Source: Brachyspira hampsonii (GTDB taxonomy: Bacteria; Spirochaetota; Brachyspiria; Brachyspirales; Brachyspiraceae). Taken from it: a DNA stretch of 64,000 nucleotides. Where the stretch lies: the NCBI RefSeq assembly GCF_002214805.1, contig NZ_CP019914.1, positions 310,001-374,000 of the forward strand, in the 5' to 3' direction. Below are positions 17,561 through 23,018 of the stretch, piece by piece. Under the pieces are notes generated by a model. It made no database searches. It was not told the origin of the DNA and saw only the letters and a list, made by a program, of their open reading frames with translations. Made by a program: the position numbers and the translations under genes. The first letter of the stretch is position 1. Every line of letters begins with the position of its first letter.

Positions 17561-19189
17561 TTACTTAAACAAATTAATTAAGGCTGGTATCCATTGATAA
17601 GCTGTACCTATAGCAGCTCCAACAACACCGCATAATAAAAATCTAAGCACTATATAAGGTTTTAATGGGAATAATATATTGCGTGCTGCCAAATATCCGC
17701 TTAATAAAGCACCAGTGAAGCCTCCGCCGGGGAAGTTCCAAGCACTAGCAAAATGTAAGTTTTTAACTGTAGGCGATACCCTTACGCATCTGCTTTTTTT
17801 CAAGTAAGTATCCTGTACAAATCCGTAAGGAGTACCGTCTGGGGTTTTTATGTATCTCTTAATTGTTTTAGGAGTAGCTACTTCATAATACTCTATATTA
17901 TCTCTAAATCCCGGATAATGCTGTTCTGCTCTGTCAATTAATTTTTCAGCCATCTCCTTTTTTCTTGCTTTATATTCTTCATCGCTCAAATCTTTCCATT
18001 CGTCTAAGAATGAAGGTCCTGTAAGTACGGCAAATGAGCGGTTATCGCCCTCCTCTACAAGTCCGCTGTCTATTGCTGAATAGTCTACAAATACAAAGTT
18101 CCTATCTTCCACTGGTATATGTCTTTGTCCTTTGGCATCTTCTTTGAAATTTGTATTTAAAGTTTTTTCTGTAGTTATAAAAGTAGAGTATGCATTATTA
18201 GGATAAAGCTCTGAGAATTTTTTCTTAAATATTATGTAAACTGTATAAAGTGATACTGAGTTTTTAAATTTCTTTATTCTCTTATCTTCATATCCTTTAG
18301 GTAATAATTCATCATAAACTATTTGAGGAGCTGCATTTGCTATTACATAATCAGCATTAACTGTAATTTCCTCTTTTGCTCTTTTATCATAATAAGTTAC
18401 TCCCTCAGCAATATTTCCTTTTACATTTATTTTCTTAACTTCTGAAGAAACTTTTATCTCCCCTCCGTTTTCTTTTATTATATCAGCTAAAGCATTTGAT
18501 AAGTTCTGACTGCCTCCTTTAATAAAATAAGCAGAGTTATAATAAGCACCCTGAGCACAAGCATGATAATACCAAGTAAACTCATATGGGTTTTGGTGAT
18601 AGTAAGTAATATTTATATTCAATATTCTTTTTAACTTATCACTTTTTATTATAGAATCCAAAACATCTCCAGTATTTTTCTGCTTAAACAATTGATATAA
18701 AATCATAGGAAGTGTTGTTACTGGAAAGAAGAAATAATCCCAAAACTTCAAGTCATAAGGTACTCTTCTTATCATATACATCATTCTTGAAAGTCCGGAA
18801 AAATATTTTTTTATGCCCTCTTTCTCCTCTGGAAACTCCTTCTCTAAAGTATTTATAGCATTCTCATAACCTTCAGGTATAACCAAATCTGTAGATTCTG
18901 TTTTTATTCTCCAAGTTTGAGGAAGCTGTACCAAATTGACTCTGTCATAAAGTCCTAATTTGCTGAATATTACATGCTTCATCTCTCTATTTTTTTTAGC
19001 CATATCCAATTCATGAAGCCCTACTTCAAATTTTACATTTTTTCTTTTGTATCCTGTAGCACATCCGCCAACTATATTATGGCTTTCTAATACAAGAACT
19101 TTTTTTCCTTGTTTTGCTAAATAGGCTCCTGAAGTTAATCCTCCTAAACCAGAACCTATTATTACTATATCATATTTATTGTTAGTCAT
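17561..19189 (-). CDS. FAD-dependent oxidoreductase, CrtI/phytoene-desaturase-like
   Basis: About 542 residues from the ATG at 19189. The frame stays open to 19288, but the good ribosome binding site (AAAGGAG at 19199-19205) has proper spacing only for 19189, and the dinucleotide fold begins right there (YDIVIIGSGLGGLTSGAYLA). A second FAD motif, VLESHNIVGGCATGY, follows at about residue 33. The C-terminus has GGGFTGALLSGYLAARN, closing the FAD site, and one hydrophobic segment. Relatives are carotenoid isomerases/desaturases and the RetSat group. No carotenoid genes are nearby, so the substrate is uncertain. Confidence 0.88.
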   Translation of the reverse strand: MTNNKYDIVIIGSGLGGLTSGAYLAKQGKKVLVLESHNIVGGCATGYKRKNVKFEVGLHELDMAKKNREMKHVIFSKLGLYDRVNLVQLPQTWRIKTESTDLVIPEGYENAINTLEKEFPEEKEGIKKYFSGLSRMMYMIRRVPYDLKFWDYFFFPVTTLPMILYQLFKQKNTGDVLDSIIKSDKLKRILNINITYYHQNPYEFTWYYHACAQGAYYNSAYFIKGGSQNLSNALADIIKENGGEIKVSSEVKKINVKGNIAEGVTYYDKRAKEEITVNADYVIANAAPQIVYDELLPKGYEDKRIKKFKNSVSLYTVYIIFKKKFSELYPNNAYSTFITTEKTLNTNFKEDAKGQRHIPVEDRNFVFVDYSAIDSGLVEEGDNRSFAVLTGPSFLDEWKDLSDEEYKARKKEMAEKLIDRAEQHYPGFRDNIEYYEVATPKTIKRYIKTPDGTPYGFVQDTYLKKSRCVRVSPTVKNLHFASAWNFPGGGFTGALLSGYLAARNILFPLKPYIVLRFLLCGVVGAAIGTAYQWIPALINLFK

Positions 19190-19555
19190 ATTCATAATCT
19201 CCTTTGATAAATTATATTTATCTTTCATAAGCATTTTTGTTTGTTTTTGCTTATATATTAATAATAATATAAAAAACAAAAAACACAAGCATTTTTTACA
19301 AAAAATGCGTATATATAGTTCCTTTTTTTGAGAAATTTAAGATTTTTTTACAATTTTGTATTACATGTATGATAAATTTAAAATGTTTATTTGTTATTTT
19401 AGAATAAATTATAATGATGCACTCTATATTATAAAACTAATAATATTAAATAATAATCAATAAAAACAACATTTACACTTTTTATAATCAAAAATTTTAC
19501 ATTTTTTGTAAATACACTATAATAAAAATATATAAAAAATAAAGCGAATAAACAA
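19190..19555. promoter_or_regulatory. Divergent control region with repeated TTTACA/TGTAA sites
   Basis: 366 bp with no gene. It holds a perfect palindrome (9-bp arms GCATTTTTT/AAAAAATGC, 19289-19308) in the leader of the FAD oxidoreductase. A second dyad, TTTAC/GTAAA (19496-19512), overlaps the -35 of a rightward promoter. The 13-mer TTTACAAAAAATG occurs at the first site on plus and at the second on minus. These could be operators for the HTH protein encoded just downstream; that is inference. Confidence 0.4.
19496..19523 (+). promoter_or_regulatory. Predicted promoter of the HTH/OLD-like operon
   Basis: TTTACA at 19496-19501, a 16-nt spacer and a perfect TATAAT at 19518-19523, about 33 nt before the start codon. 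The -35 lies inside a TTTAC/GTAAA dyad. Confidence 0.5.
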
Positions 19556-20056
19556 ATGGAAAAGAAACTATTAAGAGAAAAAATAAAAGAGCTTGATATT
19601 AGAATAATGGACTTAGCCAAATATATGCAAATGTCAAGACCTACAATTTATAAATATATAGAAATGTACGAAACTGGACATCGTAATGAAATAGAATCAA
19701 AAGTTTTAAGTGTTTTTGAATATATTGATAATAATAAAAATATAGGAAAGACTAATGTTATAAAGTTTATATTAGAGAATATATCAAAAATAGAAGAAAA
19801 TATCAGCGAAACAGAAAAGAGAAAAATACAAATAAGAAATTTATTAAAGCATCAAAATAGAACAAAAGAAGATTTTATATATCTTATTTCAGAAGATAAT
19901 TTCTTTGACCCTATTTTAGATTATTTGATAAAATGCAGAAATATAGCTGATAAAAAAATCACAGAAGAAGAATATGAGTTTATAAAGCCTTTAGAAGAAC
20001 TGTATAAAACTCAAGGCTTTAAAATAAAAATAAATAAAAAAAGGAGCAGTAAATGA
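19556..20056 (+). CDS. Small HTH protein overlapping the OLD-like gene
   Basis: 166 residues. The N-terminal 50 residues look like a helix-turn-helix (LDIRIMDLAKYMQMSRPTIYKYIEMYE, positions about 13-39). The rest is charged and helical (KIEENISETEKRKIQIR and onward) and matches nothing I recognise. The last four bases ATGA are shared with the start of the ATPase/TOPRIM gene, so the two are translationally coupled. Plausible roles are a repressor of the operon or an antitoxin-like partner; the dyads around its promoter favour autoregulation. No strong ribosome binding site is visible. The context resembles two-gene phage-defence modules, but the function is not proven. Confidence 0.7.
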   Translation: MEKKLLREKIKELDIRIMDLAKYMQMSRPTIYKYIEMYETGHRNEIESKVLSVFEYIDNNKNIGKTNVIKFILENISKIEENISETEKRKIQIRNLLKHQNRTKEDFIYLISEDNFFDPILDYLIKCRNIADKKITEEEYEFIKPLEELYKTQGFKIKINKKRSSK

Positions 20057-21695
20057 GTAGGAGATTTATAAAAATCCAAAACTATAGAAATATAGGAGTT
20101 ACAAAAGACTTGGAAGAATACCAAACACTTTATTTAAATAACACTTTGAATAAAGACGAAATGGGTGAACTTATAATACTTATAGGCGAAAACAATGTTG
20201 GTAAATCAAATATATTAGATGCTGTTAAAGTAATAAGATCTACAGAAAATGTTAAAAGTATAAATTTTCAAAATGATATTCCATACTTTATGGACTATGA
20301 AGATACAAAACCTAAAATAAAACTTATTTATATTGATGAAAACGAAAGCCCAGAGATAGAATATTTTTTAGATGAAAATTTAAATGTTAATTATAATTCT
20401 AATTTAGAAAAAGATATAATAAAAGAAAAATATAACATTAACTTTATACCTAATATTCTTTATTACAAAGAAGGAGAGGTTAAAGACAGCGATTTAATTC
20501 AACACCATTATCCATTAAAAATTCTAAATTTTTTAATGCATTATTCAAAGCTATAGGGAAAAATATCAGCACTATAGAAACAGCTTATGAAAAAGCCAAA
20601 AAAGCTCCCGGATATAAAAATCAATATCAAAACACAATAAATCATAATCTTAAAGATATAGTAAGCAAAAAATTTAATGAATTATACTTTCAGGATTTGA
20701 ACACTCAGGAATATAATTTCTATATCACTTTAGAAAAAGATCAAATATATTTATCTATGGAAAAAAATAGAAATATCATTTTATTAGAGCAGCAGTCTGT
20801 AGGCTTCAAATGGTTTTTTAATTTCTTCTTTAATTTTTTATACTCTAATGAATTAAATCCAGGAGATATAGTTTTAATGGATGAGCCTGAAATACATTTA
20901 TCAATACCGGGCAGAAGAGATTTAAGAAATTTCATTAAAAACTTTGCTAGAAATCATGGCGTAACATTTATAACTACTACTCATAATCCTTCATTTATAG
21001 ATGTTGATTATTTAGATGAGCTTAGAATTGTAAAATTCAAAAAAGATAAAATAGGCGTCGAAATACAGAATGATTTTTCTGCTATAGGTGAAGATGAAGT
21101 TGATACATTAAATGAAATAGTAGATAGTTTCGGAGTGCTTCATAGAGATATAATAACTAATCCTAATAATAAAGTAATATTTGTTGAAGGGCTTATGGAT
21201 TATAATTATCTTACAGCTTTCAAGAAATTAAAAGAAGCAAAAGAAAATAACAAAATGAATTTAGTATTTCTTCCTATTCATGGACTTGGAAAAGATGATA
21301 AGGAGATGAACAATAAATTAAAACAGTTGGTACAGTTTAGGGAGGCTGTTATATTGACAGACAGCGATGAGAGAGCTAATTTATTCAAAAAAGCTTCGGA
21401 ATCAAATACTTTAATGAAAGAGAGATTAACAGTATTTCAATTAAAAGAAGCAGATCAATCTTTCAAACAAATAGAAAGCCTATTCAGCGATAATGACAAA
21501 GAAAAATATAAGGAAATGATACAAAATAAAAGCGGAAGCCTTTCTTCATTATTCAAAAATAATATTCTTAAAAGAGAATTAGATGAAGAAACTATAAATA
21601 ATTTTAATAAACTTCTTGACTATTTAAGCGAAATGATATTAACAGTTAATAAAAATAACGGCAAAAAAAATCAAGAAGCGAATCAAAATTCTTAA
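20053..21695 (+). pseudogene. OLD-like ABC ATPase/TOPRIM nuclease, interrupted by one frameshift
   Basis: Two frames together form one protein. The first (20053-20556) has Walker A GENNVGKSN at about residue 50 and stops at TAG. The second continues the same protein: my reading in its frame is open from about 20530 (FNALFKAIGKN...), through Walker B (IVLMDEPEIHL), the H-loop THNPSF and a TOPRIM domain with VEGLMDYNYL and LTDSDE. Adding one base in the A5 run (20517-20521) or T6 run (20529-20534) restores 547 residues, normal for class 1 OLD proteins. Such ATP-dependent nucleases act in phage defence. It may be a true pseudogene, slippage-controlled, or a sequencing error. A TTG at 20697 could restart the TOPRIM part alone. 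Confidence 0.82.
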
Positions 21696-21721
21696 ATACA
21701 AACAATTAAAACTTAAACAAT

Positions 21722-21757
21722 AAAAAAGGGACTGTTTATTACAGCACTTTTTTTAAT
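21722..21757 (+). terminator. Possible terminator after the OLD-like gene
   Basis: An imperfect hairpin (AAAAAGGGACTG / CAGCACTTTTTTT) lies about 30 nt after the stop codon and ends in a T-run. The stem has mismatches, so confidence is moderate. Confidence 0.5.
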
Positions 21758-21764
21758 TATATAT

Positions 21765-21885
21765 TAGACTTGTTTCAAAACTATTTTTATTTATAATTGC
21801 TGGGACTAGCCATGCGAAGTTACAAATTTTAAATACTATTTAAAATATTATCAATAATTATTAAAATAGTTTTGACGCAAGTCTA
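21765..21885. repeat. Inverted-repeat element, copy A (121 bp)
   Basis: The 23-bp ends (21765-21787 and 21863-21885) are inverted repeats with two mismatches; the shared end sequence is TAGACTTGTTTCAAAACT. The interior has a small GC-richer patch (TGGGACTAGCCATGCGAAG) resembling the core of the larger copy at 62530-62802. There is no coding capacity, so it looks like a miniature, non-autonomous element or a dispersed structured repeat. Confidence 0.75.
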
Positions 21886-21950
21886 TTGATATTTTATTCA
21901 AATAATTTATTATGTTTGCAATTAAATTTTTTTTTATATAAGGACTTTTT

Positions 21951-23018
21951 ATGAATGATGTTTTAAATTTAATGAAAGATTTAACTAATGCATTCGGACC
22001 TTCTGGTTTTGAAGATGATGTTATAGAAGTTATAAGAAAAAATACAGCATTTATAGACAGTGAAAGAGATTCTATTAATAATCTATATTTGGGATTAAAC
22101 AAAATAGATAAAAATAAACCTATAGTTGGTTTGGATTGTCATATAGATGAAATAGGATTTATGGCAGAACATATTAATGATAATGGTACTATATCTTTTA
22201 TACCATTAGGAGGCTGGCATATACCTAATATAGTGTCAAACTCTGTAGTAATAAAATCTTCAAGCGGAGAATATGTTAAAGGAGTAATAGGTTCAAAACC
22301 TCCTCATTTTATGACTGACGAAGATAAAAGAAAACTTCCTTCACTTCATGATATGTATATTGATGTGGGCACTAGAAGTAAAAAGGAGTCTGAAGAAGTA
22401 TTCGGCATACAAATAGGAGATCCTATAGTACCTGATGTTGATTTCAGATATGATGAAAGGACAAAAAGTATATGTGCTAAAGCAATAGACAACAGAGTTG
22501 GAGCTTTATGTGTAATAGAAACTTTAAAAGCTTTAAAAGATGAAAAATTAGATGTTAATTTGGTTGGAATGATGACCGCTCAGGAAGAAGTAGGAACTAG
22601 AGGAGCTGCTGTGGCTTCTAATAAAGTAAAGCCTGATTTGGTTATAGTATTTGAAGGCTCTCCTGCTGACGACACATTCTATTATGGAGATAGAGCTCAT
22701 GGTGCTATAGGAAGAGGCTCTCAGCTTAGAATAATTGACGGCGGTATGATAACTAATCCTAGACTAAATAAATACACAATAGAAATAGCTAAAAAAAATA
22801 ATATATCCCATCAAGTTATTGTACGAGAAAAAGGTTCTACTAACGGAGCTGTTTATCATAAAACTAATTTAGGTTCTCCAAGTGTAGTATTGGGAGTAGC
22901 GACTAGATATGCACATAGTCATTACTGCTATGCTTCTTATGATGATATAACTGCTTCTATAGAAATAGCAAAAGCATTGATAAAAACTTTAAACAAAGAA
23001 AAGATAAAAGAATTTTAA
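21951..23018 (+). CDS. M42-family metallopeptidase (glutamyl aminopeptidase/endoglucanase-like)
   Basis: 355 residues. Binuclear metal-site segments are visible in order: LDCHIDEIGFMAE (His), AIDNRVGALCV (Asp), TAQEEVGTRGAAV (catalytic Glu pair), FEGSPADD and the late HSHYCYA. M42 enzymes form large self-compartmentalised tetrahedral assemblies that trim peptides in the cytoplasm. The start follows ATAAGGACTTTTTATG. A strong terminator ends the gene. It is unrelated to its neighbours and sits right after the inverted-repeat element. Confidence 0.93.
   Translation: MNDVLNLMKDLTNAFGPSGFEDDVIEVIRKNTAFIDSERDSINNLYLGLNKIDKNKPIVGLDCHIDEIGFMAEHINDNGTISFIPLGGWHIPNIVSNSVVIKSSSGEYVKGVIGSKPPHFMTDEDKRKLPSLHDMYIDVGTRSKKESEEVFGIQIGDPIVPDVDFRYDERTKSICAKAIDNRVGALCVIETLKALKDEKLDVNLVGMMTAQEEVGTRGAAVASNKVKPDLVIVFEGSPADDTFYYGDRAHGAIGRGSQLRIIDGGMITNPRLNKYTIEIAKKNNISHQVIVREKGSTNGAVYHKTNLGSPSVVLGVATRYAHSHYCYASYDDITASIEIAKALIKTLNKEKIKEF

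What the first reader, a model, noticed from the sequence alone, without database searches (positions are those of the whole stretch)
19496..21695. Two-gene HTH + OLD-like ATPase/TOPRIM module, candidate phage-defence system
An HTH protein overlaps (ATGA) a gene with an ABC ATPase (GENNVGKSN, LMDEPEIHL, THNPSF) and a TOPRIM domain (VEGLMDYNYL, LTDSDE). OLD-family proteins are established anti-phage nucleases, and classes paired with helicases (Gabija) or reverse transcriptases (retrons) are known. A small HTH partner translated in lock-step with a single-chain OLD is not a pairing I can match to a named system. The 166-residue partner has an unrecognised 110-residue C-terminal region that could be a sensor or antitoxin. 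That it is a defence system is inference from the domains.
Basis: partly seen in the sequence, partly recalled or inferred. Interest (0 to 1): 0.62.

Follow-up and report, generated by a model that had tools for sequence, protein, structure and literature searches.

The report
Self-regulated OLD nuclease operon, broken here
In gut spirochaetes of the genus Brachyspira, a small DNA-binding protein sits in front of an ATP-driven nuclease of the anti-phage OLD family and very probably shuts off their shared promoter through a row of repeated operator sites; the copy in this window has lost its working nuclease.

Summary
The two genes are real. A 166-aa HTH gene (19556-20056) overlaps by ATGA an OLD-type ABC-ATPase/TOPRIM gene. 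In this genome the OLD gene is a pseudogene: compared with the 657-aa orthologue of B. innocens it lacks 124 codons in frame and its frame breaks near 20,500.

OLD genes occur at 28 places in 21 of 26 Brachyspira genomes. The HTH gene occurs in 13 genomes (12 complete), always directly before an OLD gene, while at least 13 OLD copies have no HTH gene of their own. The HTH is therefore an optional add-on, not an obligatory partner or antitoxin.

New here: all 12 complete HTH genes carry 2-3 copies of TTTACA-N5-TGTAAA, 24 bp apart, over the operon's promoter. No HTH-less genome has the array. Half-sites are 35/36 identical between modules whose HTH proteins are 55% identical. Where the HTH is absent at an otherwise collinear site, two operators are absent too and the third is degenerate.

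Best reading: an autorepressor controlling a Class-1-like OLD nuclease, probably for phage defence. Defence itself is inference. It works like RptR, BrxR and CapW, but the HTH family is seen only in Brachyspira.

The parts
19472..19488 (+). operator-like site 1 (TTTACACTTTTTATAAT), decayed at 2 positions
   Evidence: 24 bp before site 2, as in the other genomes
19496..19512 (+). operator-like site 2 (TTTACATTTTTTGTAAA, exact palindromic half-sites), covering the -35 hexamer
19496..19523 (+). predicted promoter: TTTACA, 16 nt, TATAAT; best match in the region (11 of 12)
19556..20056 (+). HTH regulator gene, 166 aa, intact; N-terminal HTH (about 1-60), helical C-terminal region without a known family
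   Evidence: dN/dS 0.09 against the G002 orthologue
20053..20556 (+). OLD gene, 5' piece (Walker A GENNVGKSN); reads through a 372-bp in-frame deletion at about 20410-20419, then leaves frame near 20,500
20504..21695 (+). OLD gene, 3' piece in the other frame: rest of the ATPase (signature region, Walker B LMDEPEIHL, H-loop THNPSF) and TOPRIM (VEGLMD, LTDSDE)
   Evidence: 95% identical to the intact orthologue
19370..21884 (.). insert relative to empty sites in three relatives, between an amine-oxidase/desaturase-like gene (17561-19288, -) and an M42 aminopeptidase gene (21951-23018, +); left edge uncertain (19349-19389)
21765..21886 (.). about 120-bp imperfect inverted repeat at the right edge of the insert, ends repeated elsewhere in the genome; probably a separate small repeat element

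Best explanation
An autoregulated operon. The HTH protein binds as a dimer to 17-bp palindromes (TTTACA-N5-TGTAAA) repeated every 24 bp over the promoter, one covering the -35 hexamer, and so represses itself and the OLD gene translated with it. The OLD protein is an ABC ATPase with an inserted variable region and a two-metal TOPRIM nuclease. It most likely acts as an anti-phage effector whose ATPase part keeps the nuclease off until infection; the HTH adds a second, transcriptional lock. Some lineages have dropped the lock and express OLD from the same promoter. In the window's strain the HTH and promoter survive but the nuclease gene is dead. Shown: gene order, pairing, array and its co-loss with the HTH, catalytic residues, pseudogene. 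Inferred: repression, dimer binding, nuclease activity, phage defence, any inducing signal.
For: Operator array: 12 of 12 genomes with a full HTH gene have it just upstream of that gene, 0 of 14 others, with one stray weak match. Half-sites are 35/36 identical between family A and B modules against 5-6/14 for the inter-site spacers. Site 3 carries TTGACA with TATAAT or a variant downstream. Two relatives (G007, G015) share the flanks of G025 but lack the HTH ORF and two operator units, and their third site is degenerate. The HTH is under purifying selection. In OLD: G50 K51, D401 E402, E503-x3-D507, D561-x-D563 and E599 are invariant in 24 sequences, matching the Ts OLD metal ligands E377/D381/D431/D433/E480 (PMC7049728). 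The TOPRIM part aligns with retron Eco2 (Z 7.5, 162 residues). The variable region (residues about 101-275) has 0.2-0.3 mean pairwise identity in most of its 25-residue blocks (0.19-0.45) against 0.6-0.8 in the catalytic parts.
Against: No DNA binding, expression or phage data exist. The array is physically linked to the HTH gene, so co-occurrence alone partly reflects shared descent. The HTH could be an activator: site 3 covers the -35, but sites 1-2 lie upstream. No defence genes sit nearby. The 20 family B proteins carry Gln instead of the H-loop His, so ATPase chemistry may differ. The AF2 models are only moderate (mean pLDDT 67 and 61).
Confidence: 0.66

Rival explanations
1. Toxin-antitoxin pair: the HTH protein is an antitoxin that binds and neutralises a toxic OLD protein and also autoregulates.
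For: Gene order, overlap and autoregulation resemble type II toxin-antitoxin operons; AAA_21 is described in Pfam as a putative AbiEii toxin.
Against: At least 13 OLD copies have no HTH gene of their own and most are full length. HTH gain or loss needs at least 5-6 changes on the OLD tree. An obligate antitoxin could not be lost so freely.
Confidence: 0.13
2. The OLD protein serves DNA repair or cell-cycle functions rather than phage defence, with the HTH as its regulator.
For: An archaeal OLD, Cran1, is essential for cell-cycle progression (PMC12796447). The neighbours here are metabolic genes, not defence genes.
Against: Five of 26 genomes lack it, it sits at several different sites with clean empty sites in relatives, and several copies are broken. 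That is not housekeeping behaviour.
Confidence: 0.12
3. The HTH protein senses infection or DNA stress through its C-terminal region and actively triggers OLD expression (activator or induced derepression).
For: Conserved C-terminal block EDNFFDPILDYL in all 12 proteins; three operators allow cooperative, switch-like control.
Against: The C-terminal region has no recognised domain and no ligand is known. The best operator covers the -35, which favours repression.
Confidence: 0.25
4. The window's split OLD gene is made whole by programmed -1 frameshifting and is functional.
For: A slippery-looking A AAT TTT heptamer lies at 20526-20532.
Against: The conserved downstream frame already starts near 20,504, before the heptamer. 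Orthologues are unsplit, and a further 372 bp are missing.
Confidence: 0.02

Closest known systems
Class 1 OLD nucleases (P2 Old, Thermus scotoductus OLD, E. coli YbjD)
   Same: Single chain with ABC ATPase plus C-terminal TOPRIM; same metal-ligand pattern; not in defence islands; no helicase or reverse transcriptase beside it (PMC10568477, PMC7049728, PMC13261556).
   Different: About 620-734 aa against 525 for Ts OLD and 552 for YbjD; a long fast-evolving insert; in 12 genomes preceded by a linked HTH regulator with an operator array; family B has Gln in the H-loop.
RptR-controlled restriction-modification island (PMC12255303)
   Different: RptR reads a 6-bp palindrome in 9-bp repeats over the -10 and controls Type I R-M; here 17-bp palindromes every 24 bp over the -35, and an OLD nuclease. 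No sequence comparison of the two proteins was made.
BrxR / CapW WYL repressors of BREX and CBASS (PMC9122589, PMC9122601, PMC9122588)
   Same: A transcription factor upstream that restrains an immune operon.
   Different: They are HTH-WYL proteins; no WYL match in this HTH.
PARIS (AriA/AriB; Class 4 OLD)
   Same: OLD-type ATPase plus TOPRIM effector; the PADLOC AriA profile is the best padloc hit.
   Different: PARIS has two separate genes; here one chain with no DUF4435 match. The AriA profiles have nearly the lengths of the general Pfam AAA_15/AAA_21 models and are not specific.

Membership tests
OLD family (ABC ATPase + TOPRIM) | N-terminal ABC ATPase with Walker A/B | tested here: met
   AAA_15 3.2e-17 over residues 5-440 of the intact orthologue; G50K51 and D401E402 invariant
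OLD family (ABC ATPase + TOPRIM) | C-terminal TOPRIM with E-x3-D/E, D-x-D and (S/T)-x-E metal ligands | tested here: met
   E503/D507, D561/D563, E599 invariant; 597 is T in 18 of 24 but not in family A; retron Eco2 TOPRIM match
OLD family (ABC ATPase + TOPRIM) | nuclease activity | not testable with these tools
   needs protein
Class 1 OLD | stand-alone gene, not in a conserved multi-gene system | tested here: inconclusive
   true for about 13 OLD-only loci; 12 genomes have a conserved HTH partner
Class 2 OLD / Gabija | UvrD-like helicase gene immediately downstream | tested here: not met
   next genes are M42 peptidase, rhodanese, 5'-nucleotidase, nucleotidyltransferase
Class 3 OLD / retron | reverse transcriptase and ncRNA beside it | tested here: not met
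   no RT seen in the immediate neighbours scanned (ORF lists by eye); no Rfam match in 19000-22300
Class 4 OLD / PARIS | separate ariA and ariB (DUF4435) genes | tested here: not met
   single chain in all intact copies; no DUF4435 match up to E 0.1
Type II toxin-antitoxin pair | antitoxin always accompanies the toxin | tested here: not met
   OLD intact without HTH at many loci
Autorepressed defence operon (RptR/BrxR/CapW-like mode) | regulator gene first in operon, palindromic sites over its own promoter | tested here: met
Autorepressed defence operon (RptR/BrxR/CapW-like mode) | binding and repression shown | not testable with these tools
   needs gel shift and reporter

The most novel reading that the evidence does not exclude
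A previously undescribed regulated form of stand-alone OLD immunity. A Brachyspira-specific HTH family with an unrecognised C-terminal sensor region derepresses an OLD nuclease on infection through a three-site operator switch, and lineages repeatedly lose or gain this lock.
Probability: 0.25. Interest if true: 0.6.

Novelty: new variant of a known kind. Interest (0 to 1): 0.4.

Why it matters
Stand-alone OLD nucleases are the least understood OLD class, and dedicated regulators are not part of their description in the papers read here (PMC10568477, PMC13261556). Brachyspira offers natural with/without-regulator pairs at one collinear site, so the cost of an unregulated OLD nuclease and the role of the regulator can be tested directly. 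No paper in the searched library combined Brachyspira with the OLD family, and only three papers that mention Brachyspira once each turned up with phage and defense systems.

Tried and rejected
Homologues in phages, plasmids and IMG/VR: none for the HTH; for OLD only two Helicobacter phage records (35.6% over 39% of the protein; the record I opened has its OLD split into several ORFs) and distant plasmid ATPases. The genome-contig scan found only Brachyspira; phyla outside Spirochaetota were otherwise not searched. Foldseek with the HTH model gave nothing significant: the best hits, DdrO, CylR2, Aca1 and a controller protein, have E above 2, so its class is not settled. Foldseek/VIA with the OLD model gives many ABC ATPases (SMC, Rad50, PtuA, retron effectors) and does not decide the OLD class. 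The G015 weak HTH match is an MjaI-like restriction enzyme next to a methylase, by eye. Programmed frameshifting rejected.

Full report
Observation. The HTH ORF 19556-20056 and the OLD-like ORF from 20053 overlap by ATGA. The OLD gene is split in this genome. DNA alignment with G018, G017 and G002 shows 372 bp missing in frame at about 20410-20419 (size against G018) and a frame break near 20,500. Intact orthologues of 649-660 aa exist. The coding frame conserved in orthologues resumes before the slippery-looking heptamer, so this is decay, not programmed frameshifting.

The OLD protein. The intact orthologue matches AAA_15/AAA_21 end to end and is joined to a TOPRIM domain. Across 24 Brachyspira sequences Walker A and B, E503-x3-D507, D561-x-D563 and E599 are invariant. 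These correspond to the metal A and B ligands of Ts OLD (E377, D381, D431, D433, E480; PMC7049728). Two subfamilies exist. Family A (the window, G018, G017, G002, G022) keeps the H-loop His; family B, 20 of the 24 sequences, has Gln there. Residues about 101-275, an insert in the ATPase, have 0.2-0.3 mean pairwise identity in most blocks (0.19-0.45) while the ATPase core and TOPRIM have 0.6-0.8. The window's deletion removes most of that insert. Structure searches place the model among ABC ATPases including PtuA, AriA and Ts OLD, and the C-terminal part on the retron Eco2 TOPRIM.

Distribution. OLD genes are found at 28 places in 21 of 26 Brachyspira genomes, and strongly in only one other genome of 296 Spirochaetota. 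The HTH is found in 13 of 26 (12 complete, one truncated in G017) and in no other spirochaete with credible similarity. All 12 complete HTH genes are directly followed by an OLD gene (gap -3 to 195 bp). At least 13 OLD copies have no HTH gene of their own; a further one is the second OLD gene of a tandem behind one HTH (G008), and one sits at a contig end. On the OLD tree the HTH label needs at least 5-6 changes. The loci lie at several different intergenic sites. Three relatives have an empty site where the window has the module. The neighbours scanned are metabolic or cell-envelope genes, plus one PIN-domain gene, not a defence island.

The operator array. Upstream of the HTH genes lie 2-3 copies of TTTACA-N5-TGTAAA at 24-bp spacing (25 bp once); in three-site arrays the last contains TTGACA with TATAAT or a variant downstream. 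A search of all 26 genomes found the array just upstream of the HTH gene in all 12 genomes with a complete HTH gene and in none of the other 14, with a single stray weak match. Comparing modules whose HTH proteins are 55% identical, half-sites agree at 35/36 positions but the inter-site spacers only at 5-6/14. G025 (with HTH) and G007/G015 (without) share one site and its flanks; the latter lack nearly the whole HTH ORF and two operator units, and retain the -10 with a degenerate third site. The window has two units left, one with two substitutions, and the best promoter of the region (TTTACA-16-TATAAT) overlaps the other. The HTH gene is under purifying selection against G002 (dN/dS 0.09).

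Mechanism. The simplest account is that the HTH dimer occupies the array and blocks RNA polymerase, keeping an OLD effector low until needed. Binding, repression and any inducing signal are inferred. The account works like RptR, BrxR and CapW control of defence operons, with an HTH family that matches no Pfam or NCBIfam model at its threshold and no PHROG or PADLOC model convincingly. That OLD defends against phage is inferred from its family (PMC10568477), patchy distribution, site changes, a fast-evolving insert and repeated decay. It is not shown.

Verdict. The antitoxin idea is disfavoured. What is new is an autoregulated Class-1-like OLD operon with a clear, testable operator array, represented in this window by a dead nuclease gene. 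Novelty is claimed only against the families and papers searched here.

Noticed in passing
window 21765-21886: About 120-bp imperfect inverted repeat (fold z-score -5.7) whose ends resemble 28 other places in the genome; its right end coincides with the right edge of the insert, so it may be a small non-autonomous repeat element.
   Followed up: partly
L053 2107-6563 (G008): One HTH gene followed by two different OLD genes in tandem.
   Followed up: no
L063 7344-9377 (G000:C1:2557343-2559373): The window's own genome has a second, intact family B OLD gene without HTH or operator array.
   Followed up: partly
L048, L049, L050, L054, L055, L065, L067: Many OLD loci in the genus lie next to a rhodanese-like gene although the wider surroundings differ.
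   Followed up: no
L075 3964-5873 (Helicobacter phage Pt11438A_1): A relative of the OLD protein, split into several ORFs, in a Helicobacter pylori phage record; closest match seen outside Brachyspira.
   Followed up: partly
L072 7214-9069 (G015): MjaI-like restriction enzyme next to a DNA methylase, recognised by eye.
   Followed up: no
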